Both the position numbers and the translations under genes were made by a program. A model generated the notes under the pieces. The model saw only the letters and a program-made list of their open reading frames with translations, was not told the DNA's origin and made no database searches. A stretch of DNA of 64,000 nt. Origin: Daucus carota subsp. sativus (taxonomy: Eukaryota; Streptophyta; Magnoliopsida; Apiales; Apiaceae). Shown here piece after piece: positions 11,955 through 55,728 of the stretch. How positions within the stretch are numbered: position 1 is the first letter of the stretch; each line of letters begins with the position of its first letter. Where the stretch lies: the NCBI RefSeq assembly GCF_001625215.2, contig NC_030381.2, positions 1,451,131 through 1,515,130 on the forward strand, written 5' to 3'.

Positions 11955-12508
11955 GGGTTAATTATCAAGTTGGTCATTGGAGTAGGCTTAATGTATCAAG
12001 TTGGTCACTGAACTCAAAACGGTATCAAAATGGTCACTGACGTCACCATAAATATCAAAAAAGTACCTTGAAATATGAGTTCAAGTAGTAAAAATATTAT
12101 TTATAAAGATTTACACATTATTTTTAAATGTTATCACAACCAAGTAAAAGGTTATGATTTCTAGTATTTAAAATAATATATTTATATTTTATCAAGTTTA
12201 TTTATTATTTATATTTTATTATATAGTTATTTTCTTTGTTTTAATTAAAAATAAATAATAAATAAACTTGATAAAATCTAAATATATTATCATAAATATT
12301 AGAAGTCATAACCTTTAACTTGGTTTTGGTAACATTCAAAAATAATGTGTAAAACTTTATAAATAATATTTTTACTGCTTGAACTTATATTTCAAGGTAC
12401 TTTTTTGATATTTATGGCCACTTCAGTGACCATCTTGATACCGTTTTGAGTTCAGTGACCAATTTGATACATTAAACCCACTTCAGTGACCAACTTGATA
12501 ATTAACCC
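11955..12508. mobile_element. Long-inverted-repeat MITE (Mutator-like), copy 1 of 2
   Basis: Begins GGGTTAATTATCAAG and ends CTTGATAATTAACCC. The two halves are near mirror images over more than 200 bp each, so almost the whole 554-bp element folds into one hairpin. A 10-bp target duplication GTTAAAAAGG flanks it (11945-11954 and 12509-12518). The long inverted repeats and 9-10 bp duplication fit the Mutator superfamily. A second copy at 61917-62468 has the same ends and its own different 10-bp duplication. Confidence 0.9.
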
Positions 12509-21301: not shown

Positions 21302-24300
21302 TCACGGCGGAGGAGCCCATTTCCCCGCTTTGAACTTCTTATAGAAACTCGACTTAGCTGAGACAACATAGAATACTGCAGGAAAGGTATGAAAGAAGAA
21401 TCAGACAAACAGAACACAACAAAAGTAGACAAGGCTGCAAGGATAACATACCCTACGTCAACTGAAAAAGATGACATACCAGGAATACCAGGGATTAGAA
21501 AGTTGGGTTCTCTCAGAACATCATAAAGTGTTCGCTTTTCATTTACTTTAATCCACTTGGAGCGACCTTGGCCTATGAAATGAAAAACTGTTCTTGTCAA
21601 TGACTGAACTGTATTTCAGAGAAAAAACGTAGAATCCACCGGAGAAATCTAAAAAAGAAATTGCAAAACAGAAGAAAGACAGAATCACGGATCAGGAAAT
21701 GCAGGGATGACGGAACAAACCATTTGAATTGACGTCATTCACTGAGTATTCATCAGCATGTTTCTCATCATCATCAAAGCTTTCAATATGAGAACCAACA
21801 GTCCCCTCCAAGAAATAGCGAAGACTGTCCTTTTTAGAAAGACGAACTCCAGAAGCAGCCTGGTGAATTATTATTTACAAATAATCAAATTGTTTTGAAA
21901 TATAGAATTTCTACCGGATAAAAGGGATGAAGGGGGTGGCAATCAGAACTTCTGCGAGGCTAAAGGCTCACCAGTCCCAATTTGTAGCGGAAAGGACTAA
22001 TTTATACCCAAAATGTCAAGTGGTAAAGCAAAAAATAATATTGAAAGGAAAAATCTGTCTGTTTCAATCTTTTCGACATTCAGCTGAAACAGAAAATATG
22101 TAGTATACATTGTAACTTTTTGAATGTGTAGAAAGCGGGAGCCATATTGGTTGTCGCGATGTATGTTTCATCTGCTGCTTTGCTACTATTGTTATTTATG
22201 TGAATTTCCTATAACATTCTCATAGTTTGCTTTTTTAGGGACAGGCCTTTGCAATAGCTTTTGACAATCAGATAGCAACAATAAACTATAGTCTATAGGA
22301 AGTAAAACACACCTAATTACCGCTTAAAATATATATAACACGAAATATGCTACTGAGAGCAAATTGTAGTTTGTTACTGAAGCCTTTTATCTGGAATTAT
22401 AAGTTTATGACCGTATAATAGTTGGGGTAAATTATTATCAAACAGTAGCTCATAAGTTAGTAAAGAAAGAAAAGGCATATTAGAAAATAAGCAAACCTCA
22501 TAGTACAGTTCAATAGCCTCCCGCTTGTAAGCATTTTCTCTATCCCATGGCAAGGGAGGACTATCTTCTGCAAACATGTTTGAAGGTCAAGGATGGCAGT
22601 TTTTAAGTATTTCTACAAGTGGTAAGCTACTCCTATCTAGCCACGGTGAACAGCATTAAACAATACAACATGGCGTTTTCATGATTTTCTAGTAGTGCTA
22701 GCTATTCCTGGATATAACAAACCCTAACAAGCTAATAAAAAAGGATATCATGTCAAGATGAGCTGAAAACATGTCAGTCTCACAGAAGTCCTCGATGAAG
22801 TCGCTGGACATGACCTCTGCATATAGAAGAAGAACAGGCCAATGAAGGATGTTATCTTTATCTATCATCGGCTTCTTTACTCCGGTGAGTTCCTGGAACA
22901 TGGCCTTCCCAAACTTGATTCCTCTATCTTCAATAGCAGAGACAAGTTTCTGCGTAGTATATAACTAGACAATATGAAGAAGTGCAGGATACACAACAAA
23001 AGTTAATCATTTCCTTCCACTAATTTACGGCAAACTCAGTAAATTTACTACACCTTAGCTGCTGACAGAGCTTTAGAAACTTGAGCTTCGCGGAGCTCAT
23101 TCTCTGATTTCTGCAGAGAAATCTGGCTAAAAAGCTTCTTCAATTCTTCATTATCTGGAAACTGCTCCAGACCTTTTTGACAATATGATTCTGCTTCGGC
23201 CAGCAGTTTTAGAGACAAGGACGCTTTCACGGCTCTATAGTATGCCTACAATTATGATACATACAACCATTCATTGAATATACATAATATAATGTTTAAC
23301 ATAGATGATCCAAGTATTTAAACCTTAGCGTAGGTGGGAGAGAGCTTGATCGCCTGTTCAGCATCTAATAGAGCGCGCCTGTAATTTCCCAGTTGTAAAT
23401 TCACATGAGCTCTATTTGAAAACAGAACCGAGCTCTCAGCATCACTTAAAGCTTTTTGATTAATTGCCCTGGTGTAGCAATCAATAGCATCAGAGTAATG
23501 CTTTTTTCCCATCTTGACATACTCATTACCCTTTTCCTGTAAGACCATTGAAATTTTTTTAAAATATTTTCGTGGAGTGATTACAAAACATCTATAATTG
23601 TATAAAATAAGATATTCTCTTAATATTTTGAAGGAAAAAAACCAGTCTAACAGACAGTCAAGAGCATCCAACTCCAGTCCTTTACTTCCAACATATATGA
23701 TTGTTATCTTAGTCAGGATTCTACCACATGGAAAATTCTCCTTTAAATACATCCTAACGTATCTAATCACTAGCTATGCATTAATCTTTATCAAACTAGC
23801 TACCTCTCTAACACAGTCCGCCCAGTGAACAATATAATCATAGCCTAAACAACTTGCACAACCTTACTTAAGTTCAACAATCTACCCGTTCTTACTTCCA
23901 AGGTACCCATAATCTTACTGAAAAACTATAAATCCTCGAATCATGCCACTATACAGCCAAACTTCCATCTCTTAATTCTTGACATACATAAACCAAATAC
24001 CATCAAATTCTTAACAAAGAAACAAATTGTGCTTAAAAATATGAACTTTACTAACCAAGAAACAAAAATCTTCTTAAAAATGTGAACTTTACTAACCAAG
24101 AAACATAATTGTGCTTAAAATTGTGAATTTTTCGACAAAGAAACAAAACCAAAAAAAAATCACATGGCACAACATTTAATTTAAAACCCATATCAGCAAA
24201 GCTATCAACTTGCACAAAATTTAAGAGTATGTATGTATATGTAAACAAAAAAAATATAAAAAAATGAGATAAAAATGAAAAGGAAAGAGCTAGACCTTAA

Positions 24301-24400
24301 GTTCAACAGCAGCAGACACTTTGATAGCATTGATAGCAGCAAGATCATCTGCCTCCCTCTGGGTTTCGGGTTCTGACCCGGGTTCTAACCATAGTGCCAT
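21302..24400 (-). CDS. TTC4: TTC4 / Cns1-type TPR co-chaperone
   Basis: Eight exons read on the minus strand: 24400-24296, 23536-23324, 23245-23054, 22949-22749, 22577-22497, 21859-21721, 21572-21480, 21375-21302. They join in frame to 365 residues. TPR repeats occupy about 36-145 (EKGNEYVKMGKKHYSDAIDC, NRAHVNLQLGNYRRAL, AYYRAVKASLSL), followed by a charged helix. The C-terminal half is the 'wheel'-type domain of TTC4 (HWPVLLLYAE, SPPLPWD, TLYDVLREPNFLIPGIPVFY) and ends KAGKWAPPP. TTC4/Cns1 proteins bind Hsp90 and Hsp70 and assist folding of essential clients. All introns are GT-AG except the fourth, which starts ATATCCTT and ends AC (see separate entry). The gene looks intact. Confidence 0.93.
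22578..22748 (-). other. Probable U12-type AT-AC intron in the TTC4 gene
   Basis: The exon 4 coding sequence ends HLDM at 22749 and exon 5 resumes MFAEDSPPLPW at 22577. No GT-AG pair joins these in frame at the conserved place. Read on the minus strand, the intron begins ATATCCTT, the exact 5' splice consensus of U12 introns. It ends with a branch-site-like ATCCTTGAC about ten bases before a terminal AC. The 171-bp length and preserved frame both fit. Confidence 0.85.
24009..24155. repeat. About 39-bp tandem repeat in TTC4 intron 1
   Basis: Three to four diverged units with the core ACTAACCAAGAAACA and TGTGCTTAAAA. They lie inside the 759-bp first intron and have no coding meaning. Confidence 0.7.
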
Positions 24401-36911: not shown

Positions 36912-37080
36912 GTCAACTATATTTGTCGAATAACAAGATATACAAGGAGAGCAACTACTAAGCTGTCGAGAGTCTCGAAACTTTGACAATGTCAACTATA
37001 TTTGTAAAATAACAAGATATACAAGGAGAGCAACTACTAAGCTGTCGAGAGTCTAAGCTGTCGAGAGTCTCGAGACTTTG
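36912..37080. repeat. 79-bp tandem duplication upstream of YUCCA copy 1
   Basis: GTCAACTATATTTGT through GCTGTCGAGAGTCTCGA occurs at 36912 and again at 36991, with an extra short repeat of AAGCTGTCGAGAGTCT. Other units have the block only once. Confidence 0.85.
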
Positions 37081-37938
37081 GCAAGCAGAAAAGAATCAAA
37101 AAGTAGCAAAGACTTCAACCATTGAACTCAGACATGCATGGATAATTAAACTACGCCTAGCCAAAAGGACTTGATCAAAACCATAAACTGCATTGCACAG
37201 CAATAAAGAATATTCATAAGTTGATCAAAATACACTTTTATCCAGGCTACAAGTTCTTATATCACTCATGTCTTCACTGTGTGGTGATCATGAGTGTCTG
37301 TATATAGTCCGCGATGGCTAGTGCTGAATCAGATCGTAAATGCCCGTAATTTAAATTAAATTCAAATTAAAGATTTATTCGCTGTATCTATTTCATAATG
37401 ATCTATTGGAAGCACATAAAAAAGTAGCCTAGCGCTGATGTAAACATGGGCAAATTCTGACATCAGGGCAATAGTTTTTATGCTATAAATTTATAACTTT
37501 AACTTAATTCTAATATATAAATAGATAATAATATTCAAATACCGCAGAGAAAAGGATAAAGTTATGAAGAGATAAAATGGAAACGCTCAATAGGAAAACT
37601 TATATGTAGATTACTCGAATCAAAATAAATTTCTAAAACTATATAGTTGATATTTAAATTACAGTGAAAAAGGAAAAAGAAAAAAAGAAAAGAGAGAAAA
37701 GAAATCCAGATGAATCTGTACATAACATGCATAATACTGGTCATATCTATTTGGATATTAGAATTTGAAACTGAAAAAGGAAAAAAATAATGTTGAAACG
37801 GAAACAGATGATGAAATACGGCTGATTCTGAATGTAAAACTGAAATAGAATTTTTTTTTAGGAAATCCGAGTGAATTTTTAGTATTTAATGGAATCCAGA
37901 TTAACGTTTTTGCTCAGAACCTGAACCGATTCTCCAGC

Positions 37939-37946
37939 TAGAAAAA
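37939..37946 (+). promoter_or_regulatory. Degenerate TATA position of YUCCA copy 1
   Basis: Where copies 2-4 read CCAGCTATATAAACAG, copy 1 reads CCAGCTAGAAAAACAG. Two substitutions destroy the TATA box while the flanks are conserved. Confidence 0.85.
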
Positions 37947-38045
37947 CAGCTACTTCTGTTGCAAACACAAAGCAAATCTTCAACACAACCAGTAGCTTCT
38001 TGTCTTGCAAACACAAAAAATTTCTCAACAATCTGTTTGCGGAAA

Positions 38046-39457
38046 ATGGCTGGTGGTCCTGAGCAAAATGGCATGTTTTCGCGCAGGTGTGTCTGGGTGA
38101 ACGGTCCTCTGATCATCGGAGCAGGACCATCTGGACTCGCTGTGGGAGCATGCCTTAAAGAACAGTGTGTCCCTTTTGTGGTTGTGGAAAGAGCTGATTG
38201 TTTAGCTTCTTTGTGGCAAAACAGGACTTATGATCGCCTTAAGCTTCACCTTCCCAAACAGTTTTGTCAGCTTCCAAAACTACCATTCCCAGAGGATTAT
38301 CCAGAATACCCTACCAGAAAACAGTTCATTCAGTATATTGAATCATATGCAGATCATTTTGGCATCAAACCACAATTCAATGAGTCTGTGGAGTCTGCTA
38401 AGTACGATGAGGCTGCTCGTGCATGGCGAGTAACAACTGTTTCAACAAAGGGGTCTGTCAGGTCTGAGGTTGACTACATTTGTCAGTGGATTGTGGTGGC
38501 CACAGGAGAAAATGCAGAGCCTGTGATCCCGGAGATTGCAGGACTAGGAGATTTTGGCGGTGAAGTTATACATGGCCGTGAGTACAAGTCGGGTAAAGAT
38601 TATAGTGGGAAAAAAGTTCTTGTTGTGGGGTGTGGAAATACTGGCATGGAAGTTTCACTTGATCTTTGTAATCATAATGCTAAGCCATCAATGGTGTCTA
38701 GAAGCCCGGTAAGTCTTCAATAGAAGTTTTGATATAATTTGACTATGCAAATCATGTGTCAGATGATATCAAGTACTAAAGATTTTTGTAAAATATTTCC
38801 ACAGGTTCATGTATTGCCAAGAGAAATATTCGGCAAATCAACATTTGATTGGGCAATGATGATGATGAAATGGCTTCCCGTGTGGCTAGTCGACAAGATT
38901 TTACTGACACTGACATGGTCTATACTTGGTGACCTTGAGAAGTATGGTATAAAAAAGCCATCAATCGGTCCCATGGAGTTAAAGATCAAAGATGACGGAA
39001 AAACACCTGTTCTTGATATTGGAGCACTGGAGAAAATCCGATCTGGCGGTATCAAAGTGGTTCCTGGAATCAAGAAGTTCTCCAAAACCATGGTAGAGCT
39101 TGTAAATGGTCAACAACTAGAGATTGATTCAGTAATTTTGGCCACTGGATACCGCAGTAATGTTCTCTCTTGGCTACAGGTGAGAAAATGGTGCTTTTAT
39201 TTGTTTCTTCTTTTTCTGTTTCATCTTTTTAAAGAATTGATTGATAACATTATTTATGACAGGAAACTGAGTTTTTCTCTAAATCCGGGTATCCCAAGAC
39301 ACCTTTTCCGAATAGCTGGAAGGGAAAGAATGGACTCTATGCAGTTGGATTCACAAAGAGAGGACTACTTGGTGCTTCTGCAGATGCCATGAGAGTTGCC
39401 CAAGATATTGCTGAGCTCTGGAAGAAGGGGTTGAAGCAGAAGAAACCAAATGTCTGA
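38046..39457 (+). CDS. YUC: YUCCA flavin monooxygenase, array copy 1
   Basis: Exons 38046-38708, 38805-39179, 39263-39457 (both introns phase 0) give 410 residues. The enzyme converts indole-3-pyruvate to indole-3-acetic acid with FAD, NADPH and O2, the rate-limiting step of the main auxin pathway. Motifs: FAD site GAGPSG at 25-30, flavin-monooxygenase signature [11 protein letters not shown] at 170-180, NADPH site GCGNTG at 195-200, ATGY at 334-337. The opening [20 protein letters not shown] and overall match place it nearest the YUC3/5/7/8/9 branch, from memory of Arabidopsis YUC8. The coding sequence is intact. Differences from the others: KRG for QRG and PNSWKG for PNGWKG near the end, and a four-residue shorter C-terminus than copies 2 and 3. 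Its TATA box is lost, so it may be expressed differently or silent. Confidence 0.95.
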
Positions 39458-39814
39458 CCACATATATTGACATTTCTATTGACATATCAGACCAACTTCA
39501 GTCATGTATTCTCTCTCATTAGGACAAATATAACCAACATTAGGGGCTAGTAAATTTGTAGATAAGAAGAATGTGTGATAATTGGAATGCATGAATCTTC
39601 ACATATTCTCTATTATTGTTACTTATGATATTTTTTACTCATTTTAACTAACGATTTTAGAGGGTTGGGATGCTCCATTTAAGCTACAAGGAATGCTTTC
39701 TACAAAAAAAAAAATCCTCAGAGAAATGAGTGCACGTCTCAGAAGTTCACGTCAGCCTAAATGATCGAAGGATCTATTTAAATGTTAGACACTTGGTTGT
39801 GATATTCACAGGAG

Positions 39815-40075
39815 TTTAGGTTTGTGTTTAAAGATGCGGCTACAATTTTTTCCAAGGTCTTGACTTCCTTTTGAAGCTTTGTTACAAGCAACGGCATCAC
39901 TCAACAAAGCCTCTTTGTTCGTCTTAGATCGAGCTATTAGGCACGACTACTCTTAATGCATAAAGTTGCAGGTTCAGTTTTTTCAAGTCTCTGTCTCTCT
40001 GCAGCTCTGCTTCTGCATAATTGAGGGGGTCTTCTCTGCGAATGTTCATTAATGCTAAAATTCTTCCCCTGCCTA
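39815..40075 (-). pseudogene. Decayed bHLH (MYC-type) domain fragment in spacer 1
   Basis: On the minus strand one frame reads REDPLNYAEAELQRDRDLKK then LNLQLYALRVVVPNSS, matching the MYC-type basic region and first helix (usual form REEPLNHVEAERQRREKLNxRFYALRxVVPN). A second frame continues SKTNKEALLSDAVAC and, after another shift, LQKEVKTLEKIVAASL, matching the loop and second helix. Stops and frame shifts break it, and the DNA-contact residues are partly lost. It covers only the bHLH region; I see no start or N-terminal part. It resembles MYC2/bHLH13-like factors of jasmonate signalling. Confidence 0.75.
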
Positions 40076-40453
40076 CTTAAAATTTTAAGGAACTCATATA
40101 CAATATGTGAGCTGAAATCCCATCAGAAGTTTGTTCACTGTATTATTCTGGTTGATGTAAGTTTGTAATATAGTGTCACAAACTTCCATGCCTGTCATTT
40201 TGAAGAAACAGAATGCAGAGAATGAGAACTTCAACTAAAGAATTTATTTGAAGTAGTAAATCCAAGAAATAAAACAAGGAACAGAGAGTCAAACAACATC
40301 AAACACAGAAAAACTTTGATCATAAACATGTTCAAGTGCAAGACATGCAGCAACTACGACAAACCATATACTCATTTCCATTTCCATCCCAAGATGACCC
40401 TCTTGTTAAATGATTTGGTTTTTCTCCATCTCTACTGTAAAGACTTCCGCTAG

Positions 40454-41029
40454 TATTCTTTCCGTCCCGAATTTAATATATTTTTTTCATGTTAGTTAGA
40501 AGTTAAATTGACCAATTTTTGATAAAATATTAAAAAAATAGTATCTATCTATTATATTAAAAAATAGAAAGTTATGTTAGATAAATTTCAGTCGATGTAT
40601 AGTATATTTACTAATTAAAAGGGAGATGCACAGTGGCGGAACCAGGATTAATTTCGACCCCGGGCTAAACTATTATTAAAATTTTAGCAAAAAAATTAAA
40701 AGTAAATATGCATACCTTAATTGTTTAAGTGATGACATCTTTATTGTCTTTTTTTTAAGAAGGAATGGATGACAACTGAATTCTAGGATTTTGCATATTT
40801 TGATAGCGTTGTAAGACAACTTCATCGTTTATGTCTTTAAATATGACTTTCTCGATGTAAACCACCATGTTAAATGGGCTATTTTTTATATATATAATCA
40901 TATTTAAATTTATCCCCGGGCTAAAAAATTAAAAATAAATTATATTTATTATTTTTTTCTTAGCCGGGGCTGGCGCCGGGGCTAGTCCCCTGGTTCCGTC
41001 CTGGACATGCATGATGAGATGAGGGAGTA
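40454..41029. mobile_element. Stowaway-type MITE of the array, split by a hAT element (unit 1)
   Basis: The left part TATTCTTTCCGTCCCGAATT and right end GAGGGAGTA correspond to the elements at 46100 and 51005 in the later units, but here the right portion is replaced by the 373-bp hAT insertion. The Stowaway predates the array duplication. Confidence 0.75.
40631..41003. mobile_element. hAT-type MITE, only in array unit 1
   Basis: CAGTGGCGGAACCAGG and CCTGGTTCCGTCCTG are inverted ends. Flanks GAGATGCA and GACATGCA give an 8-bp target duplication with one mismatch. The GC-rich arms (GGGGCTGGCGCCGGGGCTAG) contrast with an AT-rich middle. Confidence 0.9.
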
Positions 41030-41843
41030 TTAAATATATAGTATATTGAAAATGCAAATAAGGAGTGGAATTTTGAAAGAGTGTTGGAAAATGCATGTCT
41101 TAAAAGGAGAAGGGTTCAGCTAATTTTGTTTTATAAATTTTTTGACTATTTGGACATAATTTTAAGAGTTTTAACTACACAACAAAAAAATATTATTTTT
41201 AAAATTATTTTTTCATGAATAAAATTATTCGATTAGCATGATAATTACAAAAAAAATTAAAAGTAATACTTTTACTGTATAATAAACAATTTAGAAATAT
41301 GAATCAAAAGCCAAACGACCTATAGACATATAAAATATATATAATGGTTTGTCAAATAAAATATATATAATGGTTTGTCCAAATTTGGACACTAAATGAA
41401 ATCAAAACAAGAGCGTTAGATTGACATGCAGGTTGAATACATGTAAGCACGATTTCAGCTATGATTAAGCATGACCTCACCATAATATCAAAATATATTT
41501 ACTTTGCATTTTGTTTTAGCTATATTTGTCTATATTATATTGTCCGGTTTTTTCTTTAATATAATTTTTTAATGTTAAGAAAATGTTAAGTATCTTAAAA
41601 AACGTTTCCTCATTCTTGTTTTCAAATAAAGTTGGCCATCGATTCCACGCATATTAATAATAATACGATTCTCATTTTTTTCACAATTGATGTATGGAAG
41701 TCTCATTGGTTCGAATAATAATGAGACCGAGACCCACCTCGTATATACTTCAATCTATATCTTCCTCTTGTCACACATCATTTGGTAAAGAAATTTAAAA
41801 TTTTTTTTGGGTATCTAACATTGTTCTTGTTTTTCTTGTAATT

Positions 41844-42101
41844 TACTCCCTCCATCCCAAATTAGATAAGCCTTTTGGAAATTTTTTTTATTCCAAAATA
41901 GTTGTGCTTCTCCTTTTTTGATGCATATTTATCACCCATCTTCCATCTTTACCCTCTATTATTTATTATTTCAATGTACCACTATACAATAAGAAGTCAA
42001 CACAATAAATATGGGTAAAGATGGAAAAAGAAACAACCATTTAATAATTCTTAATATACGTGAAATGAGCAAAAGCCTAATCTAAATTAGGATGGAGGGT
42101 A
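41844..42101. mobile_element. Stowaway-type MITE, only in array unit 1
   Basis: TACTCCCTCCATCCCAAATT and AATTAGGATGGAGGGTA are inverted ends at a TA site. The later units have the uninterrupted sequence AATTTATATTTCTTGCAAC at this place. Confidence 0.9.
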
Positions 42102-42126
42102 TAAATTTTTTGCAACATTAACATAA

Positions 42127-42322
42127 TGGCCTGTTTGGGAATCATGATTTCATTTGAAATTCTGGATTTGATCAAATAACTTGTTTGAGAATTTGGATTT
42201 GGATTTCATTTGAAATCCAGACATTAAAATGTTAGTAGAAATCTGAAAATTTGAAATGACAACTCAAACCCTGTCATTTGAAATCCATCATTTGAAATGA
42301 AATGCATGTTTCCAAACGGTCT
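42127..42322. mobile_element. Tourist-like (PIF/Harbinger) MITE, only in array unit 1
   Basis: TGGCCTGTTTGGGAA and TTCCAAACGGTCT are inverted ends flanked by TAA on both sides. The interior repeats ATTTGAAAT motifs. Units 2 and 3 carry the empty site (TAAAGATAAAGTCAATT). Confidence 0.85.
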
Positions 42323-43469
42323 TAAAGTCGATTCGCGTATTTACAGGGAACGAACCTTCATTGGCAACACAGATCTGAGTGACATTGTTAAGTAGTGACT
42401 AATCTTTTGAGGACTAACAGATAGACTTGCACTAAAACAAGCCTAGCCCTGTTTAGACTCACTTGGACTAAAAAGACTTCTACTAAGCTGCATTCATACA
42501 AAACCTGGCCATACCTGCATTTTTCCGAATCCAAGGCAAACAATAACTGCACAGAATAAGAGGATATACAAGGAGAGCAAACTACTAAGCTGTCGAGATT
42601 CTGACAAGCAGAAAGGATTCAGAAAGTAGCAAAGACTACAACATTGAACTTTGCAGATATGCATGGATAATTAAACTACGCCTAGCAGAAAGGACTCAAT
42701 CAAAACCATAAACTACATTGAACAGTGACAGCAGTAAACAAAATTCATAAGTTGATCAAGTTCCACTTTTATCGAGGCTAGCTACAAGTTCTTATCACTC
42801 AATGTCTTCGCTGTCTGGGGATCACGAGTGTCTGATAGTCCGCAATGGCTAGTGCTGAATCAGATCGTAAAAGGCCGTAATTAAATTAAATTAAAATTAA
42901 AAATTTATTTCGCGGTATTTAATTTTATAATGATATATTGGAAGCGAATAAAAAAGCAATCCAGAGCTGATGCAAACAGGCGCAAATTCTGACATCACCA
43001 CATTAGTTTTTATGCTATAAATTTAAAATCATTAACTTAATTCTAAGATAAAAATAAATAATAATTTTCAAATACTGCATAGAAAAGGATATAGAAAAAA
43101 AAGAAATAAAATGAAAACGCTCAATAGGAAAACTTATATGTAGATTACTGAAATCAAAATAAATTTCTAAATCTATCTAGTTGAAATTTGAACTGCACTG
43201 AAAAAGGAAAAACAAAAAAGGAAATCCGGATGAATCTGTGCATATTACGCGGGATACTCGTCATATTCATAAATCTATCTATTTGGAGGTCAGAATTGAA
43301 ACTGAAAATAGAAAAAAATACTGTTCAAAACGGAAAGAGATATTGAAATTCGGATGATTCTGAATGTAAAACTGAAAAAGAAATTTTTTTTAGGAAATCC
43401 GAGTGATTTTTAGTATTCAATGGGATCCAGATTAACGTTTTTGGTCAGAACCTGAACTGATTCTCCAGC

Positions 43470-43477
43470 TATATAAA
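43470..43477 (+). promoter_or_regulatory. TATA box of YUCCA copy 2
   Basis: TATATAAA, 100 bp before the start codon, in a leader conserved between units (CAGCTTCTTCTGTTGCAAAC). Confidence 0.8.
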
Positions 43478-43576
43478 CAGCTTCTTCTGTTGCAAACACA
43501 AAGCAAATCTTTAACACAAACAGTAGCTTCTTGTCTTCCAAACACAACAAAAGTTTCAACAATCTGCTTGTGGAAA

Positions 43577-44990
43577 ATGGCTGGCGGTCCTGAGCAAAAA
43601 GGCATGTTCTCGCGCAGGTGTGTCTGGGTGAATGGTCCTCTGATCATCGGAGCAGGACCATCTGGACTAGCTGTGGGAGCATGCCTTAAAGAACAATGTG
43701 TCCCTTTTGTGGTTGTCGAAAGAGCTGATTGTTTAGCTTCTTTGTGGCAGAACAGGACTTATGATCGCCTTAAGCTTCACCTTCCCAAACAGTTTTGTCA
43801 GCTTCCAAAATTACCATTCCCTCAAGATTATCCAGAGTACCCTACCAGAAAACAGTTCATTCAGTATATTGAATCATATGCGGATCATTTTGGCATCAAA
43901 CCACAGTTCAATGAGTCTGTGGAGTCTGCTAAGTACGATGAGGCTGCTCGTGCATGGAGAGTTACAACTGTTTCAACAAAGGGGTCTGTCAGGTCTGAGG
44001 TTGACTACATTTGTCAGTGGATTGTGGTGGCCACAGGAGAAAATGCAGAGCCTGTCATCCCGGAGATTGCAGGACTAGGAGATTTTGGCGGTGAAGTCAT
44101 ACATGGTCGCGAGTACAAGTCAGGTAAAGATTATAGCGGGAAAAAGGTTCTTGTTGTGGGGTGTGGAAATACTGGCATGGAAGTTTCACTTGATCTTTGT
44201 AATCATAATGCTAAGCCATCAATGGTGTCTAGAAGCCCGGTAAGTCTTCACTAGAAGTTTTAATTTGATTGTGCAAATCATATTAAATTAGGTTGATATC
44301 AAGTACTAATTTGTTCTAAACATTTTCACAGGTTCATGTATTGCCAAGAGAAATATTCGGAAAATCAACATTTGATTGGGCAATGATGATGATGAAATGG
44401 CTTCCTATCTGGCTAGTCGACAAGATTTTACTGACACTGACATGGTTTATACTTGGTGACCTTGAGAAGTATGGTATAAAAAAGCCATCAATTGGTCCCA
44501 TGGAGTTAAAGATCAAGGATGATGGAAAAACACCTGTTCTTGATATTGGAGCACTGGAGAAAATCCGATCTGGCGGTATCAAAGTGGTTCCTGGAATCAA
44601 GAAGTTCTCTAAAACCATGGTGGAGCTTGTAAATGGTCAAGAACTAGAGATTGATTCTGTTATTTTGGCCACTGGATACCGCAGTAATGTTCTCTCTTGG
44701 CTACAGGTGAGAAAATGGTGCTTATATTTTATTTTCCTATTTCATATTTTTAAAGAATTGATTTAGAACATATTTTCTGACAGGAAACTGAGTTTTTCTC
44801 TAAATCCGGGTATCCCAAGACACCTTTCCCGAATGGTTGGAAGGGAAAGAAAGGACTTTATGCTGTTGGATTCACACAGAGAGGACTACTTGGTGCTTCT
44901 GCCGATGCCATGAAAGTTGCACAAGATATTGCTGAGCTCTGGAAGGAGGACTGGAACAAGGAGTTGAAGCAGAAGAAACCAAATGTCTGA
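43577..44990 (+). CDS. YUC: YUCCA flavin monooxygenase, array copy 2
   Basis: Exons 43577-44239, 44332-44706, 44784-44990; 414 residues. All cofactor motifs are present at the same positions as in copy 1. Specific marks: [11 protein letters not shown] at the start, FPQDYPEY where the others have FPEDYPEY, and a C-terminus carrying EDWNK ([18 protein letters not shown]), also in copy 3 but absent from copies 1 and 4. The TATA box is intact, splice sites are canonical and there is no break. It should be a working indole-3-pyruvate monooxygenase. Confidence 0.95.
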
Positions 44991-45344
44991 CCACATATAT
45001 TGACAATTTTATTGACATATCAGACCAACTTCAGTCATGTAATATCTCTCATTAGGACAAATATAACCAACATTAGGGGCTACTATATTTGTGGATAAGA
45101 AGTGTGTGTGATTGGAATGCATGAATTTTCACACATTCTCTATTTTTTGTATCTATGATATTTTTTTCTCATTTTAACTAACGATTTTAGAGGGTTGGGA
45201 TGCTCCATTTAAGCTATAAGGAATGCTTTCTAAAATATGAAAAATTCTCAAAAAAAAGAGTGCATGTCTCAGAAGTTCACGTCAGCCTAAATGATCGAAG
45301 GATCTATTTATATATTAGACACTTGGTTGTAATATTCGCAGGAG

Positions 45345-45598
45345 TTTAGGTTTGTGTTTAAAGATGCGGCTACAATATTTTCCAAGGCCTCGACTTCCCT
45401 TTGAAGATTGGTTATACAAGCAACGGCATCACTCAATAAAGACTCTTTGTTCGTCTTAGATCGAGCTATTTGGCACGACTACTCCTAATGCATAAAGTTG
45501 CAGGTTCAGTTTTTTCGAGTCTCTGTCTCTCTGCTTCTGCATAATTGAGGAGCTCTTCTCTGCGAATGTTCATTAGTGCTAAAAATCTCCCCCTGCCT
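45345..45598 (-). pseudogene. Decayed bHLH (MYC-type) domain fragment in spacer 2
   Basis: Same fragment as in spacer 1. Minus-strand frames read NIRREELLNYAEAERQRLEK, then, shifted, SKTNKESLLSDAVACITNLQ continuing REVEALENIVAASL. Here the basic region keeps EAERQR, so it is closer to a functional motif than unit 1, but a deletion shifts the first helix out of frame. Confidence 0.75.
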
Positions 45599-46099
45599 AC
45601 TTAAAATTTTAAGGAACTCGTATACAATATGTGAGGTGAAATCCCATCAGAAGTTTGTTCACTATTATTCTGGTTGATGTAAGTTTGTAATATAGTGTCA
45701 CAAACTTCCAGAATTTGAATAAGATCTACTACATAATGTATGAATTAATTTAATTAAAATGAATACTTAAAGGCAACATTTACTCTGAATAAGTTTTTTG
45801 ACATGTTCACATAACAAATGCGCTGGGGTAGTTGTTGAATGCCTGTCATCTTGAAGAAATAGAATGCAGAGAATGAAAACTTCAACTAAAGAATTTATTT
45901 GAAATAGTAAATCCAAGAAATAAAACAAGGACAGAGTCAAACAACATCAAACACAGAAAAACTTCGATCATAAACATGTTCAAGTGCAAGACATGCATAA
46001 CTAAGATAAACCATATACTCATTTCCATTTCCATCCCAAGATTTGACCCTTTTTTCAAATGATTTGGTTTTTCTCCATCACTACCCATAAAGACTTCAA

Positions 46100-46363
46100 T
46101 AGTGCTCTCTCGGTCCTAAATTTCATAATTTTTTAATTATTTAGAAGTTAAATCGACCAATTTTTGACAAAATAATTAAAAAAAAATTATTTTTAATTTT
46201 AGAAAATAGAAAGTTGCATGTTAAAACTGATTAGATATACGTTGGTATATATATTTTCCTAATTATATGATATATATAAATTTCAGAAAGTATAGTCAAT
46301 TAACTAGAAAAAAAAATTAGTCAAAAGTCAAAAAGGACATATATTATAAGCCGGAGGTAGTAT
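46100..46363. mobile_element. Stowaway-type MITE, unit 2
   Basis: CTCTCTCGGTCCTAAATTTC and TTATAAGCCGGAGGTAGTA are worn inverted ends. Orthologous to 51005-51260, hence inserted before these units separated. Confidence 0.7.
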
Positions 46364-48335
46364 TAGATATTTGGTATGTTGAAAATGCAAATAAGGAGGG
46401 TAATTTTGAAAGATTGTTGAAAAATGTGCGCCGTAAAAGGAGAGGTTCGGCTAATTTGTTTTATAGGCCGTTTGATTTTTTGACATACAATTCAAGAGTT
46501 TTGACTAGATAGCAAAAAAATATTACTTTTAAAATTTTATTTTTGTGAATAAAATTATACAATAAGAATAATAATTCATAAAAAGTTTAATAATAATATT
46601 TTTTTATATAGCCAAAAGTTGACAAAAACGTGTCAAAAGTCAAACGACCTCTAAAAATATAAAATATAAATATAAAATATGTGTAATGGTTGGTCAAAAT
46701 TTGGGTACTAAATCAAATTACATCAAAATTAAAACAAGACTATAACATTAGAGGTAAAGTTCAAAAAAAAAAACATTAGATGTAGGTTGTATACATGTAA
46801 GCATGATTTTAGCTATGTATAATCCTGACGTCACCACGATATCAACTATTTTTACTTTGCATTTCGTTTAAGTTATGTTTCCTTATATTTTATTGTAGGT
46901 TTTTTCTTTTAATATAGTTTTTTAAGATTGGAAAAATACTTGGTATATTTCAAAAATTATTTTCTAATATTTTTTTTCAAATCTAATTGGCGATTGGTTT
47001 CACGTATATTAATAATAATAAGATATCATGTATATATATAAATCATCTAATTAATTAGTGATGTCATTTGGGAAAAAATTGGAACCATAATTTGACAGGA
47101 GTAAATATTATGCATTTATGTTTTTCTTTTAATTTATATTTCTTGCAACATTAACGTAAAGATAAAGTCAATTCGCGTATTTACAGGGAACGAACCTTCA
47201 TTGGCAACACAGATCAGGGTGACACTGTTAAGTAGTGACTTATCTTTGAAGGACTAACAGATAGACTTGCACTGAAACAAGCCTAGCCCTGTTTAGACTC
47301 GCTTGAACTAAAAAGACTGCTACTTGAGATTATTTTTTATCACCAACTTAAAATTACAACAACATGCATTCATACAAACCTCGTCATACCTGCATTTTTC
47401 CGAATCCAGGGCAAAACAAGAACTGCATAGAATTACAGGATATACAGAGCAAACTACTAAGCTGTCGAGATTCTGACAAGCAGAAAGGACTCAGAAAGTA
47501 GCAAAGACTACAACAACATTGAACTTTGCAGACATGCATGGATAATTAATTAAACTATGCCTAGCAGAAAGGACTCATTCAAAACCATAAACTACATTGC
47601 ACAGTGACAGCAGTAAACAACATTCATAAGTTGATCAAGTTCCACTTTTATCGAGGCTACAAGTTATTATCACTCAATGTCTTCTGTGAGCGGATCACGA
47701 GTATCTGTATATAGTCCGCTATGGCTAGTGCTGAATCAGATGGTAAAAGGCCGCAATTAAATTAAATTAAAATTAAAGATTTATTTCGCGGTATTTATTT
47801 CATAATGATCTATTGGAAGCAAATGAAAAAGCAATCCAGAGGGCAGAGCTGATGCAAACAGGCGCAAATTCTGACATCACAGCATTAGTTTTTATGTTAT
47901 AAATTTAAAACTTCAACTTAATTTTAAATTAAAAATAAACAATAACATTCAAATACTGCATAGAAAAGGATATAGAAAAAAATGGATAAGAAGGAAACGC
48001 TCAATAGGAAAACTTATATGTAGATTACTTAATACTATCAAAATAAATTTCTAAATCTATCTAGTCGAAATTTGAATCACAATGAAAAAGGAAATCCGGA
48101 TGAATCTGTGCATATTACGCGGGATACTGGTCATATTCACAAATCTATTTGGAGGTCAGAATTGAAACTGAAAACGGGAAAAAATAATGTCCAAAACGGA
48201 AAGAGATAATGGAAGTCGGATGATTCTGAATGTAAAACTGAAAAAGAAATTTTTTTTAGGAAATCCGAGTGATTTTTAGTATTCAATGGAATCCAGATTG
48301 ACGTTTTTGGTCAGAACCTGAACCGATTCTCCAGC

Positions 48336-48343
48336 TATATAAA
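48336..48343 (+). promoter_or_regulatory. TATA box of YUCCA copy 3
   Basis: TATATAAA, 101 bp before the start codon. The surrounding leader is almost identical to copy 4. Confidence 0.8.
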
Positions 48344-48443
48344 CAGCTTCTTCTGTTGCAAACACAAAGCAAATCTTCAACACAAACAGTAGCCTTCTTG
48401 TCTTGCAAACACAAAAAAATTCTCAACAATCTGCTTGCGGAAA

Positions 48444-49863
48444 ATGGCTGGTGGTACTGAGCAAAATGGCATGTTTTCGCGCAGGTGTGTCTGGGTGAAC
48501 GGTCCTCTGATCATCGGAGCTGGACCATCTGGACTCGCTGTGGGAGCATGCCTTAAAGAACAATGTGTCCCTTTTGTGGTTGTGGACAGAGCGGATTGTT
48601 TAGCTTCTTTGTGGCAGAACAGGACTTATGATCGCCTTAAGCTTCACCTTCCCAAACAGTTTTGTCAGCTTCCAAAACTGCCATTCCCAGAGGATTATCC
48701 AGAGTACCCTACTAGAAAACAGTTCATTCAGTATATTGAATCATATGCGGATCATTTTGGCATCAAACCACAATTCAATGAGTCTGTGGAGTCTGCTAAG
48801 TACGATGAGGCTGCTCGTGCATGGAGAGTTACGACTGTTTCAACACGAGGGTCTGTCAGGTCTGAGGTTGATTACATTTGTCAGTGGATTGTGGTGGCCA
48901 CAGGAGAAAATGCAGAGCCTGTCATCCCGGAGATTGCAGGACTAGGAGATTTTGGCGGTGAAGTCATACATGGTCGCGAGTACAAGTCAGGTAAAGATTA
49001 TAGCGGGAAAAAGGTTCTTGTTGTGGGGTGTGGAAATACTGGCATGGAAGTTTCACTTGATCTTTGTAATCATAATGCTAAGCCATCAATGGTGTCTAGA
49101 AGCCCGGTAAGTCTTCACTTAAAGTTTTGATATAATTTAATTATGCAAATCATATTTAGGTTGATATCAAGTACTAATTTGTTCTAAACATTTCTAAAGG
49201 TTCATGTATTGCCAAGAGAAATATTTGGAAAATCAACATTTGATTGGGCAATGATGATGATGAAATGGCTTCCTATCTGGCTAGTCGACAAGATTTTACT
49301 GACACTGACATCGTTTATACTTGGTGACCTTGAGAAGTATGGTATAAAAAAGCCATCAATTGGTCCCATGGAGTTAAAGATCAAGGATGATGGAAAAACA
49401 CCTGTTCTTGATATTGGAGCACTGGAGAAAATCCGATCTGGCGGTATCAAAGTGGTTCCTGGAATCAAGAAGTTCTCTAAAACCATGGTGGAGCTTGTAA
49501 ATGGTCAAGAACTAGAGATTGATTCAGTTATTTTGGCCACTGGATATCGCAGTAATGTTCTCTCTTGGCTACAGGTGAGAAAATGGTGCTTTTATTTTAC
49601 TTTATTTTCCTATTTCATATTTTTGAAGAATTGATTTAGAACATATTTTCTGACAGGAAACTGAGTTCTTCTCTAAATCGGGGTATCCCAAGACACCTTT
49701 CCCGAATGGCTGGAAGGGAAAGAATGGACTTTATACTGTTGGATTCACACAGAGAGGACTACTTGGTGCTTCTGCAGATGCCATGAAAGTTGCACAAGAT
49801 ATTGCTGAGCTATGGAAGGAGGACTGGAACAAGGAGTTGAAGCAGAAGAAACCAAATGTCTGA
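48444..49863 (+). CDS. YUC: YUCCA flavin monooxygenase, array copy 3
   Basis: Exons 48444-49106, 49200-49574, 49657-49863; 414 residues with all FAD, NADPH and signature motifs. Start [16 protein letters not shown] and LYTVGFT are shared with copy 4 and differ from copies 1 and 2 ([14 protein letters not shown]). Its own change is TLTSFILG for TLTWFILG in exon 2. The intron 1 acceptor is CTAAAG rather than the CACAG of the other copies; it is still an AG but a weaker context. It has the longer EDWNK C-terminus. It looks functional. Confidence 0.95.
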
Positions 49864-50208
49864 CCATATATATTGAAATTTCTATTGACATGTCAGACCA
49901 ACTTCAGTCATGTATTCTCTCTCGTTAGGACAAATATAACCAACATTAGGGGCTACTAAATTTGTGGATAAGAAGAATGTGTGATTGGAATGCATGAATT
50001 TTCACACACTCTCTATTATTTTTTTTTTATGATATTTTTTACTCATTTTAACTATCGATTTTAGAGGGTTGGGATGCTTCATTTAAGCTATAAGGAATGC
50101 TTTCTACAAAAAAAAATTCTCAGAAAAAAGAGTGCACGTCTCAGAAGTTCACGTCAGCCTAAATGATCGAAGGATCTATTTAAATATTAGACACTTGGTT
50201 GTGATATT

Positions 50209-50466
50209 CGCAGGAGTTTAGGTTTGTGTTTAAAGATGCGGCTACAATATATTCCAAGGCCTCGACTTCCTTTTGAAGCTTAATTATACAAGCAACGGCA
50301 TCACTCAATAAAGAGTCTTTGTTCGTCTTAGATCGAGCTATTAGGCACGACTACTCCTAATGCATAAAGTTGCAGGTTCAGTTTTTTCAAGTCTCGGTCT
50401 CTCTGCTTCTTCATAATTGACGGGCTCTTCTCTGCGAATGTTCATTAGTGCTAAAATTCTCCCCCT
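50209..50466 (-). pseudogene. Decayed bHLH (MYC-type) domain fragment in spacer 3
   Basis: Minus-strand frame DAVACIIKLQKEVEALEYIV continuing AASLNTNLNSCEY gives the second helix. The basic region and first helix lie upstream in another frame, with stops between. Third copy of the same fragment; none follows YUCCA copy 4. Confidence 0.72.
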
Positions 50467-51004
50467 GCCTACTTAAAATTTGAAGGAACTCATATGCAAT
50501 ATTTGAGGTGAAATCCCATCAGAAGTTTGTTCACTATTATTCTGGTTGATGTAAGTTTGTAATATAGTGTCACAAACTTCCAGAATTTGAGTAAGATCTA
50601 CTACAAAATGTCAAAATGTATAAATTAATTTAATTAAAAGGAATACTTAAAGGCAACATTTACTCTGAATAAGTTTTTTGACATGTTCACAGAACAAATG
50701 CACTGGGGTAGTTGTTGAATGCCTGTCATCTTGAAGAAAATCAGAAATAGAATGCAGAGAATGAAATCAGAGAATGAAAACTTCAAATAAAGAATTTATT
50801 TGAAATAGTAAATTCAAGAAATAAAACAAGGACAGAGTCGAACAACATCAAACACAGAAAAACTTCGATCATAAACATGTTCAAGTGCAAGACATGCATA
50901 ACTAAGACAAACCATATACTCATTTCCATTTCCATCCCAAGATTTGACCCTTTTGTTAAATGATTTGGTTTTTCTCTATCACTACCCATAAAGACTTCCA
51001 ATAG

Positions 51005-51260
51005 TATTCTCTCCGTCCTAAATTTCATTATTTTTTAATTATTTAAAAGTTAAATCGATCAATTTTTAATAAAATATTTAAAAAATTTATTTATAATTTT
51101 AAAAAATAGAAAGTTACATGTTAAAACTAACTACATATACGTTGGTATATATATTTTCCAAATTATATGATATATATAAATTTCAGAAAGTATAGTCAGT
51201 TAATTAGAAAAAATATAGTCAAAAGTCAAAAATGACATATATTATAAGACGGAGGGAGTA
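51005..51260. mobile_element. Stowaway-type MITE, unit 3
   Basis: TATTCTCTCCGTCCTAAATT and TTATAAGACGGAGGGAGTA form the inverted ends, sharper than in unit 2. Confidence 0.8.
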
Positions 51261-53229
51261 TGAGATATATGGTATATTGAAAATGCAAAAGAGGGTAATT
51301 TTGAAAGATTGTTGAAAAATGTATGCAATAAAAAGAGAGGTTCGGCTATTTTTGTTTTATAGAACGTTTGATTTTTTAACATACAATTTAAGAATTTTGA
51401 TTAGATAGCAAAAAATATTACTTTTAAAATTTTGTTTTTGTGAATAAAATTATACAATAAGTATAATAATTCATAAAAAAATTAATAATAATATTTTTAT
51501 TATTTTATAGCCAAAAGTTTAAAAAATGTGTTAAGAGTCGAACGACTTATAAAAATACAAAATATGTGTAATGGTTTGTCAAAATTTGGACACTAAATGA
51601 AATCAAAACAAGACTATTATGTTGAGATGTAGGTTGTCTACATGTAAGCATGATTTCAGCTATGGATAAGCCTGACGTCACCATGATTTCAACTATTTTT
51701 TACTTTGTATTTGGTTTAGGTTATGTTTCTCTATATTTTATTGTAGGTTTTTTCTTTTAATATAGTTTTTTAAGATTGGAAAAATACTTAGTATATTTCA
51801 AAAATTATTTCTTAATATTTTTTTCCAAATTTAGTTGGCAATTGGTTTCACGTATATTAATAATAATAAGATACCTTGTATATATACAAAATAATCTGAT
51901 TAATTAATGATGTCATTTGGGAAAAAATTGGAACCACAATTTGACATGAGTAGTTAATATTATGCATTAGTTTTTTTTTTTTGAAACTAATATTATGCAT
52001 TAGTTAACATGTTTTTCTTTTAATTTATATTTCTTGCAACATCAACATAAAGATAAAGTCAATTTGCGTATTTACAGCAGGGATAGAACCTTCATAGGCA
52101 ACACAGATCAGAGTGACATTGTTAAGTAGTGAAATCTTTCAAGGACTAACAGATAGACTTGCACTGAAACAAGCCTAGCCCTGTTTAGACTCACTTGAAC
52201 TAAAAAGACTGCTACTTGAGATTATTTTCTATCACCAACTTAAAATTACAACAACATGCATTCATACAAACCTCGCCGTACCTGCAGTTTTCCCAATCCA
52301 AGGCAAACCAAGAACTGTACAGAATAACAGATATGCAAGGAGAGCAAACTACTAAGCTGTCGAGATTCTGACAAGCAGAAAGGATTCAGAAAGTAGCAAA
52401 GACTACAACAAAACTGAACTTTGCAGACATGCATGGATAATTAATTAAACTATGCCTAGCAGAAAGGACTCATTCAAAACCATAAACTACATTGCACAGT
52501 GACAGCAGTAAACAACATTCATAAGTTGATCAAGTTCCACTTTTATCGAGGCTACAAGTTATTATCACTCAATGTCTTTTGTGTGCGGATCATGAGTATC
52601 TGTATATAGTCCACGATGGCTAGTGCTGAATCAGATCGTAAAAGGCCGTAATTAAATTAAATTCAAATTAAAGATTTATTTCGCGGTATTTATTTCATAA
52701 TGATCTATTGGAAGCAAATGAAAAAGCAATCTAGAGGCCAGAGCTGATGCAAACAGGCGCAAGTTCTGACATCACAACATTAGTTTTTATGCTATAATTT
52801 TAAAACTTTAACTTAATTCTAAAATAAAAATAAACAATAACATTCAAATACTGCATAGAAAAGGATATAGAAAAAAAAGAGATAAGAAGGAAACGCTCAA
52901 TAGGAAAACTTATATGTAGATTATACTTAATTCAAAATAAATTTCTAAATCTATCTAGTTGAAATTTGAATTACAATGAAAAAGGAAATCCGGATGAATC
53001 TGTGCATATTACGCGGGATACTGGTCATATTCACAAATCTATTTGGAGGTCAGAATTGAAACTGAAAACAGAAAAAAATAATGTCCAAAACGGAAAGAGA
53101 TAATGGAAGTCGGATGATTCTGAATGTAAAACTGAAAAAGAAATTTTTTTTAGGAAATCCGAGTGATTTTTAGTATTCAATGGAATCCAGATTGACGTTT
53201 TTGGTCAGAACCTGAACCGATTCTCCAGC

Positions 53230-53237
53230 TATATAAA
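53230..53237 (+). promoter_or_regulatory. TATA box of YUCCA copy 4
   Basis: TATATAAA, 101 bp before the start codon. Confidence 0.8.
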
Positions 53238-53337
53238 CAGCTTCTTCTGTTGCAAACACAAAGCAAATCTTCAACACAAACAGTAGCCTTCTTGTCTTGC
53301 AAACACAAAAAAATTCTCAACAATCTGCTTGCGGAAA

Positions 53338-54740
53338 ATGGCTGGTGGTACTGAGCAAAATGGCATGTTTTCGCGCAGGTGTGTCTGGGTGAACGGTCCT
53401 CTGATCATCGGAGCTGGACCATCTGGACTCGCTGTGGGAGCATGCCTTAAAGAACAATGTGTCCCTTTTGTGGTTGTGGACAGAGCGGATTGTTTAGCTT
53501 CTTTGTGGCAGAACAGGACTTATGATCGCCTTAAGCTTCACCTTCCCAAACAGTTTTGTCAGCTTCCAAAACTGCCATTCCCAGAGGATTATCCAGAGTA
53601 CCCTACTAGAAAACAGTTCATTCAGTATATTGAATCATATGCGGATCATTTTGGCATCAAACCACAGTTCAATGAGTCTGTGGAGTCTGCTAAGTACGAT
53701 GAGGCTGCTCGTGCATGGCGAGTTACAACTGTTTCAACAAAGGGGTCTGTCAGGTCTGAGGTTGACTACATTTGTCAGTGGATTGTGGTGGCCACAGGAG
53801 AAAATGCAGAGCCTGTCATCCCGGAGTTTGCAGGACTAGGAGATTTTGGCGGTGATGTCATACATGGTCGCGAGTACAAGTCTGGTAAAGATTATAGCGG
53901 GAAAAAGGTTCTTGTTGTGGGGTGTGGAAATACTGGCATGGAAGTTTCACTTGATCTTTGTAATCATAATGCTAAGCCATCAATGGTGTCAAGAAGCCCG
54001 GTAAGTCTTCACTAGAAGTTTTAATTTGATTATGCAAATCATATTTAGGTTGATATCAAGTACTAATTTGTTCTAAACATTTCCACAGGTTCATGTATTG
54101 CCAAGAGAAATATTTGGAAGATCAACATTTGATTGGGCAATGATGATGATGAAATGGCTTCCTATCTGGCTAGTCGACAAGATTTTACTGGCACTGACAT
54201 GGTTTATACTTGGTGACCTTGAGAAGTATGGTATAAAAAAGCCATCAATTGGTCCCATGGAGTTAAAGATCAAGGATGATGGAAAAACACCTGTTCTTGA
54301 TATTGGAGCACTGGAGAAAATCCGATCTGGCGGTATCAAAGTGGTTCCTGGAATCAAGAAGTTCTCTAAAACCATGGTGGAGCTTGTCAATGGTCAAGAA
54401 CTAGAGATTGATTCAGTTATTTTGGCCACTGGATACCGCAGTAATGTTCTCTCTTGGCTACAGGTGAGAAAATGGTGCTTTTATTTTACTTTATTTTCCT
54501 ATTTCATATTTTTGAAGAATTGATTTAGAACATATTTTCTGACAGGAAACTGAGTTCTTCTCTAAATCGGGGTATCCCAAGACACCTTTCCCGAATGGCT
54601 GGAAGGGAAAGAATGGACTTTATACTGTTGGATTCACACAGAGAGGACTACTTGGTGCTTCTGCAGATGCCATGAAAGTTGCACAAGATATTGCTGAGCT
54701 CTGGAAGAAGGAGTTGAAGCAGAAGAAACCAAATGTCTGA
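53338..54740 (+). CDS. YUC: YUCCA flavin monooxygenase, array copy 4
   Basis: Exons 53338-54000, 54089-54463, 54546-54740; 410 residues, motifs complete. N-terminal half nearly identical to copy 3; own changes include [19 protein letters not shown] (Phe and Asp where the others have Ile and Glu), GRSTFDW for GKSTFDW and LALTW for LTLTW. The Glu-to-Asp change lies within the flavin-monooxygenase signature but is conservative. The C-terminus is the short form ([14 protein letters not shown]), as in copy 1. Unit homology ends soon after its stop codon. Confidence 0.95.
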
Positions 54741-55728
54741 GACCACATTTTGACATATCAGAACAACTTCAGTCTGCATTAATCTCTCTCATTAGGAGAT
54801 TAACATTTTTAGTCTGCATTTCAGTCTTCTATGTCTTCCATTGTCATTTTATTTTGTATTTTGTAATAACAAATGGATTCTCATATGCCATGCTGGTACT
54901 GATATTGGCATGTATTAGATACTAACATGGGCATGTATTAGATATTGGAACTGTGTTCTTTTTCAATTATTAGACTTATATGTCTTATAAATGAATATTT
55001 GTTTACATCAATTTCGAAATGAGTTATAATCGAAGGAGGGCTTAATATGAAAAGAGATATGTATCTCTTCATATGTTATTACATAAGTTCTATTTTATGA
55101 TATTAATTTCAGAGAAAATTTGAATCACATAAAAGTCATAAATAATTTTTACGAATTTTCTCAAGTTAGTATGACATTGACTAATATGTGAAACCGAAAA
55201 TTTGTCTGACAAAACTAAAATTTAAGAAAATCTCATCTAAACTTGAAAGATAAAATATGGTTATACAAGGAAATTTTTTGCATATAATGAAATACTGTAA
55301 ATGAATTCATAGAAGTTCCATTTTCTCTCTGAAAAACAGATAAATATAAATATGCTGACAGCACAAGTATATTCTTAAGCTCATTTCACAGTTAAAAGAA
55401 AGTGCAATACATCTCCGTCTAATGCACTATCATCTCGCTACATATCCTTGTCTCCAGGATGGAAGTAGTTACGAGGCTAACCCAGACCAAACCCCTTGAA
55501 TATGAATCAATGATTTTTGTTAGTCATGTTTTGTTCTTATAATCAATACTGTATTAATCTTGAATAATCAGTATACTACTTATTTTTATTTATTACTCCC
55601 TCCATCCTAGCTGATTGTTTACGTTTACTTTACTGTTTGCACGCATTTGAGGCTCTCAGAGCATCTTAGCACATTCCTTAAATATAATATAAAATATTGG
55701 ATCCTAGTGACTTAAGATTAGACCTGGC
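54741..55728. other. Intergenic sequence right of the YUCCA array
   Basis: Unique sequence from about 54790. GGCATGTATTAGATA is repeated at 54907 and 54931. A lone Stowaway left end (TACTCCCTCCATCCTAG) sits at 55593 without a partner. No gene. Confidence 0.5.

What the first reader, a model, noticed from the sequence alone, without database searches (positions are those of the whole stretch)
22578..22748. U12-type AT-AC intron in the TTC4 co-chaperone gene
The sequence shows ATATCCTT at the 5' end, a branch-like ATCCTTGAC ten bases from the 3' end, and a terminal AC; with these borders the protein reads HLDM-MFAEDSPPLPWD in frame. AT-AC introns are a very small class, spliced by the minor spliceosome, so expression of this essential chaperone would depend on it. 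The start and end calls come directly from the bases; minor-spliceosome use is inferred.
Basis: partly seen in the sequence, partly recalled or inferred. Interest (0 to 1): 0.72.

Follow-up and report, generated by a model that had tools for sequence, protein, structure and literature searches.

The report
Minor-spliceosome intron in plant TTC4 gene
A plant gene for a TTC4-type heat-shock co-chaperone carries one intron with the textbook signals of the rare minor (U12) splicing machinery; this looks real, but it is one more member of a well-known class and has not been seen in RNA here.

Summary
On the minus strand, 22748-22578 (171 nt) begins ATATCCTTTT, ends AC, and carries TCCTTGAC with its A ten bases from the 3' end. 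Removing it joins exons 4 and 5 of an eight-exon TTC4/Cns1-like co-chaperone gene in phase 0, giving HLDM-MFAEDSPPLPWD; a solved TTC4 chain aligns across this join without a gap. The gene's other six introns are GT-AG. No GT-AG, GC-AG or mixed pair tested gives as good a protein: 114 at best versus 125. Retention gives a stop after 253 residues. The same genome has U11, U12 and U6atac genes whose recognition stretches pair with this intron; models for U4atac and two minor-spliceosome proteins found nothing. A pattern scan also turned up an ATATCC...AC intron in a FANCM-like gene. Minor-spliceosome splicing is very likely, but no RNA and no other plant's TTC4 could be examined. 'Essential' is not supported for plants: an Arabidopsis TPR2 insertion line is reported with about 10% smaller seeds. 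An ordinary member of a known class.

The parts
22578..22748 (-). U12-type AT-AC intron 4, 171 nt, phase 0
   Evidence: ATATCCTTTT...TCCTTGAC...AC in register with the junction asked for by homology
22739..22748 (-). 5' splice site ATATCCTTTT
   Evidence: Positions 3-10 make 8 contiguous pairs (one G-U) with the 5' end of both U11 genes; positions 4-11 make 8 contiguous pairs (one G-U) with U6atac AGAAAGGA in all four U6atac genes
22586..22594 (-). branch-site string ATCCTTGAC, branch A at 22587 (intron position -10)
   Evidence: TCCTTG makes six contiguous pairs (one G-U) with U12 TAAGGA; nine bases follow the A
22749..22949 (-). exon 4, ends ...HLDM
   Evidence: aligned to a TTC4 chain, 6hfo_A
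22497..22577 (-). exon 5, begins MFAEDSPPLPWD
   Evidence: aligned to a TTC4 chain, 6hfo_A
21302..24400 (-). TTC4/Cns1-like gene, 8 exons, 365 aa; exons 24400-24296, 23536-23324, 23245-23054, 22949-22749, 22577-22497, 21859-21721, 21572-21480, 21375-21302
   Evidence: the other six introns are all GT-AG; TPR and Wheel domains. Exon borders are read from sequence and homology, not from RNA

Best explanation
This is a genuine U12-type intron of the AT-AC subtype in a plant TTC4/Cns1-like Hsp70/Hsp90 co-chaperone gene. U11 pairs with the 5' splice site and U12 with TCCTTGAC, bulging the A; U6atac then replaces U11, and the 171 nt are removed to join HLDM to MFAED inside the Wheel domain. If it is retained, translation stops after 253 residues. 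Shown: the sequence, the frame, the homology across the junction, and the presence and complementarity of U11, U12 and U6atac genes in the same genome. Inferred: that splicing happens here in the cell and that the minor spliceosome does it; the order of events is established knowledge of that machine, not tested here.
For: Exact match to ATATCCTT, one change from TCCTTAAC, and AC acceptor (consensus as given in passages of PMC2831892). Best of 289 stop-free junction-and-frame combinations against a TTC4 stretch (125; next 118, another AT-AC form losing one Met and the donor motif; best GT-AG 114). Pfam Wheel 52.8 bits versus 44.6 (that GT-AG form), 48.5 (one-Met form) and 28.0 (retained, truncated). 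Alignment FSAHLDMMF / FIDHLMVMF across the junction without a gap; gaps begin five residues after it. snRNA genes over cut-off with matching pairing: U12 x1, U11 x2, U6atac x4. C, not G, at +5; the U2-type AT-AC introns of sodium-channel genes have G there (passages of PMC2831892). A second such intron in the same genome, in a FANCM-like gene.
Against: No RNA evidence. The branch has G where the quoted consensus has A. Its distance to the 3' end (nine bases after the A) is just under the 11-13 nt optimum quoted in PMC3584512 (passages; how that paper counts was not checked). U4atac, zf-U11-48K and PDCD7 models found nothing in the genome; the U4atac and PDCD7 searches rang in 0 of 14 control genomes and 48K in 1, Sulfolobus acidocaldarius, so they do not show absence. 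The T run makes 7-pair U11 and U6atac matches possible in other registers, and no chance level was computed for the pairings. Motif alone is not enriched genome-wide once one repeat family is set aside. No other plant's TTC4 was reachable.
Confidence: 0.94

Rival explanations
1. [quoted passage not shown]
For: Termini alone do not fix the class; U2-type AT-AC introns exist, including a reporter in Arabidopsis (passages of PMC2831892 and PMC6283158).
Against: The full ATATCCTT with C at +5 and a TCCTTGAC branch close to the 3' end are the U12 signature; the sodium-channel U2-type AT-AC introns have G at +5, and the Arabidopsis reporter is said to lack the U12 motifs.
Confidence: 0.03
2. A GT-AG or GC-AG intron with shifted borders, the AT-AC reading being a coincidence.
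For: In-frame GT-AG pairs without stops exist, e.g. 22722-22561 and 22728-22561.
Against: They replace MFAEDS with foreign residues and score lower against TTC4 (114 and 112 versus 125) and, for the one scanned (22722-22561), against the Wheel profile (44.6 versus 52.8 bits).
Confidence: 0.02
3. The segment is retained and yields a truncated protein, the gene being decayed.
For: The retained frame is open for 16 residues past the junction, then stops.
Against: All eight exons join into one open frame and the domain continues past the junction. A truncated copy of part of intron 1 and exon 2 lies elsewhere; this is not that copy.
Confidence: 0.01

Closest known systems
U12-type introns, AT-AC subtype (minor spliceosome)
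   Same: 5' site ATATCCTT exact, branch TCCTTRAC, short branch-to-3' distance, AC end, complementary U11/U12/U6atac in the genome
   Different: Nothing categorical; branch has G for A, and the distance is slightly short of the quoted optimum
AT-AC intron in the FANCM-like gene of the same genome (C3:51547874-51548046, minus)
   Same: ATATCCTTTT start, TCCTTAAC branch with ten bases after its last A, AC end, at a coding junction
   Different: Different gene, phase 1 rather than phase 0, 173 nt
U2-type AT-AC introns
   Same: Terminal dinucleotides
   Different: The described ones lack the U12 5' and branch motifs or have G at +5 (passages)

Membership tests
U12-type intron | Extended 5' splice site [A/G]TATCCTT | tested here: met
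   ATATCCTTTT at +1 to +10
U12-type intron | Branch site close to TCCTTAAC | tested here: met
   TCCTTGAC, one change, at the R position
U12-type intron | Short branch-to-3' splice-site distance | tested here: inconclusive
   Nine bases after the A; quoted optimum 11-13 nt, way of counting not checked; the FANCM-like case has ten
U12-type intron | Terminal AT-AC or GT-AG | tested here: met
   AT-AC
U12-type intron | No distinct polypyrimidine tract | tested here: inconclusive
   Last 20 bases 65% pyrimidine, including the branch motif
U12-type intron | Pairing with the organism's own U11, U12 and U6atac | tested here: met
   8, 6 and 8 contiguous pairs, one G-U each; no chance level computed
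U12-type intron | Complete minor spliceosome in the organism | tested here: inconclusive
   U11, U12, U6atac found; U4atac, 48K zinc finger and PDCD7 models found nothing and had no informative control
U12-type intron | Splicing depends on the minor spliceosome | not testable with these tools
   No RNA data
TTC4/Cns1 co-chaperone | TPR domain followed by Wheel domain | tested here: met
   TPR_1 40 bits and Wheel 56.5 bits, both over cut-off
TTC4/Cns1 co-chaperone | Hsp70/Hsp90 binding | not testable with these tools
   Needs binding assays; AtTPR2 is reported to bind Hsp90 (PMC2939883, passages)

The most novel reading that the evidence does not exclude
The off-consensus branch site makes this intron a slow, regulated step, so that the level of this co-chaperone, whose Arabidopsis relative is heat-induced and affects seed size, is set by minor-spliceosome activity under stress.
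Probability: 0.07. Interest if true: 0.5.

Novelty: new member of a known kind. Interest (0 to 1): 0.2.

Why it matters
It adds a well-supported AT-AC intron in a chaperone gene, which a gene finder that insists on GT-AG would probably mis-annotate (inference), and it could serve as a single-gene readout of minor-spliceosome activity in this plant. It does not change understanding of the class.

Tried and rejected
Cross-species comparison: one scan each of viral contigs and genome contigs with the 94-residue stretch around the junction confirmed no relative (0 of 2 and 0 of 22 pattern matches); by their descriptions these collections hold viruses, bacteria and archaea. A retrocopy showing the spliced junction was sought in the same genome with the joined 114-base sequence: only the two exons of this gene matched. 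The second TTC4-like place (C1:2768687, L006) proved to be an 88% copy, 732 bases, of part of intron 1 and part of exon 2, not reaching the junction.

Papers, by search: 'U12-type intron'+Arabidopsis+TTC4, 0; 'AT-AC intron'+U12+plant+'minor spliceosome'+tetratricopeptide, 0; TTC4+'minor intron', 0; TTC4+'U12-type', 1, a dog copy-number paper seen only in the listing; At1g04130, 4, of which passages of two were read and neither main text holds 'U12'; 'U12-type introns'+'AT-AC'+Arabidopsis, 35, of which passages of four were read; DROL1+'AT-AC'+intron+Arabidopsis, 3, none read; 'U12-type intron'+tetratricopeptide+maize, 1, not read; 'minor introns'+'Daucus carota', 1, not read; FANCM+U12+intron+plant, 3, none read. 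The pan-eukaryotic survey PMC10639083 holds no 'TTC4', 'Daucus' or 'carrot' in its main text. So I found no print statement of this intron in the held open-licence library; intron databases and supplements could not be checked, and I expect that it is listed there. Two papers on Arabidopsis or plant U12 introns (PMC169882, PMC423220) are not held.

My first exon table had several borders off by one or two bases and gave stops; corrected.

Full report
What is there. On the minus strand the stretch 22748-22578 is 171 nt long, begins ATATCCTTTT and ends CTTCAAAC. It sits between exon 4 (22949-22749) and exon 5 (22577-22497) of an eight-exon gene, 24400-21302, that translates without a stop into 365 residues once seven introns are removed; the other six introns are GT-AG. 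The protein has TPR repeats and the Cns1/TTC4 Wheel domain, TPR_1 and Wheel being over Pfam's cut-offs.

Is the junction right? A solved TTC4 chain (PDB 6hfo, human by recall) aligns across it without a gap, FSAHLDMMF against FIDHLMVMF; gaps begin five residues later. I listed every GT-AG, GC-AG, AT-AC, AT-AG and GT-AC pair at least 60 nt apart in the segment 22946-22497, leaving 60 bases at its start, in three frames. 289 combinations had no stop, and the claimed one scored best against the TTC4 stretch (125). Next was another AT-AC form with the same acceptor and a donor three bases upstream (118), which loses one Met and the donor motif; the best GT-AG pair scored 114, GC-AG 112, AT-AG 110, GT-AC 105. 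The Wheel profile agrees: 52.8 bits for the claimed form, 48.5 for the one-Met form, 44.6 for the best GT-AG form, 28.0 for the retained form. Retention stops translation after 253 residues.

Is it U12-type? The 5' site is an exact match to the ATATCCTT quoted for the class, and TCCTTGAC differs from the quoted TCCTTAAC at one base (passages of PMC2831892). The genome that holds the window (441 Mb, 11 contigs) has one U12, two U11 and four U6atac genes over Rfam's cut-offs. Their recognition stretches pair with this intron: U11 with intron positions 3-10 (8 pairs, one G-U), U6atac with positions 4-11 (8 pairs, one G-U), U12 with TCCTTG (6 pairs, one G-U). The branch A has nine bases after it, slightly short of the 11-13 nt optimum given in PMC3584512 (passages).

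Results against. The U4atac model and the Pfam models zf-U11-48K and PDCD7 found nothing; the controls rang in 0, 1 (an archaeon) and 0 of 14 genomes, so this is not evidence of absence. The 8-mer alone occurs about as often as expected in the window (5 versus 4.0). Genome-wide, ATATCCTT N132-162 TCCTTRAC N5-11 AC gives 32 matches against 11 for the reversed pattern. 25 of the 32 rows are, by eye, one repeat family, often in pairs about 9 kb apart; of four comparisons between its loci, two within pairs gave 99.9% and 98.7% over 1.8 kb and two between pairs gave 96% and 89%. The remaining 7 rows are 6 places. In 2 of these 6 the flanks are coding and join in frame: this gene and a FANCM-like gene. 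The other four were only read by eye in translations of 150 bases on either side and not searched. I did not look for repeats among the 11 control matches.

The FANCM-like case. At C3:51547874-51548046 (minus) a 173-nt stretch starting ATATCCTTTT, with TCCTTAAC and ending AC, separates two coding stretches that join into a helicase segment aligned over all 93 residues to a chain named Fanconi anemia group M protein (9el5_A, E 2.6e-22). It is a second AT-AC intron of the same make in this genome, found by the pattern and not chosen beforehand; it too has no RNA evidence.

Function and consequence. TTC4/Cns1 proteins are Hsp70/Hsp90 co-chaperones (family knowledge; Cns1 binding both is stated in PMC2939883, passages). 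I take Arabidopsis TPR2 (At1g04130, 360 aa) as the orthologue from its TPR sequence, and from its primer ends (MALWMDAG and AGKWTPPN by my translation), printed in PMC2939883; that paper reports that it binds Hsp90 and is heat-induced (passages). Its insertion line has about 10% smaller seeds (PMC12428041, passages). Essentiality is recalled for yeast Cns1 and is not supported in plants by what I saw. The splice-site variant in PMC12428041 concerns a GU site at exon 3, not an AT-AC site, and the paper does not mention U12.

Verdict. A real, ordinary U12-type AT-AC intron, very probably spliced by the minor spliceosome. The plant is not named by any tool. Novelty is low: one more member of a known class.

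Noticed in passing
G000:C3:51547874-51548046 (L031): A second ATATCC...TCCTTAAC...AC intron, in a FANCM-like helicase gene, phase 1.
   Followed up: partly
L006 (G000:C1:2767187-2770336): An 88% identical, 732-base copy of part of TTC4 intron 1 and part of exon 2, about 1.3 Mb from the gene.
   Followed up: partly
37070-54756: Four similar stretches in tandem, about 4.9 to 5.5 kb apart, whose pieces are 80-96% alike; contents not examined.
   Followed up: no
11955-12508 and 61917-62468: A 554-base stretch that matches its own reverse complement at 89% (a long inverted repeat), with an 85% copy near the window's end.
   Followed up: no
genome-wide, e.g. L022/L023, L029/L030: A repeat family holding ATATCCTTTATCG...TCCTTRAC...AC, in pairs about 9 kb apart as long terminal repeats would be (inference); it would inflate naive U12-intron scans of this genome.
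   Followed up: partly
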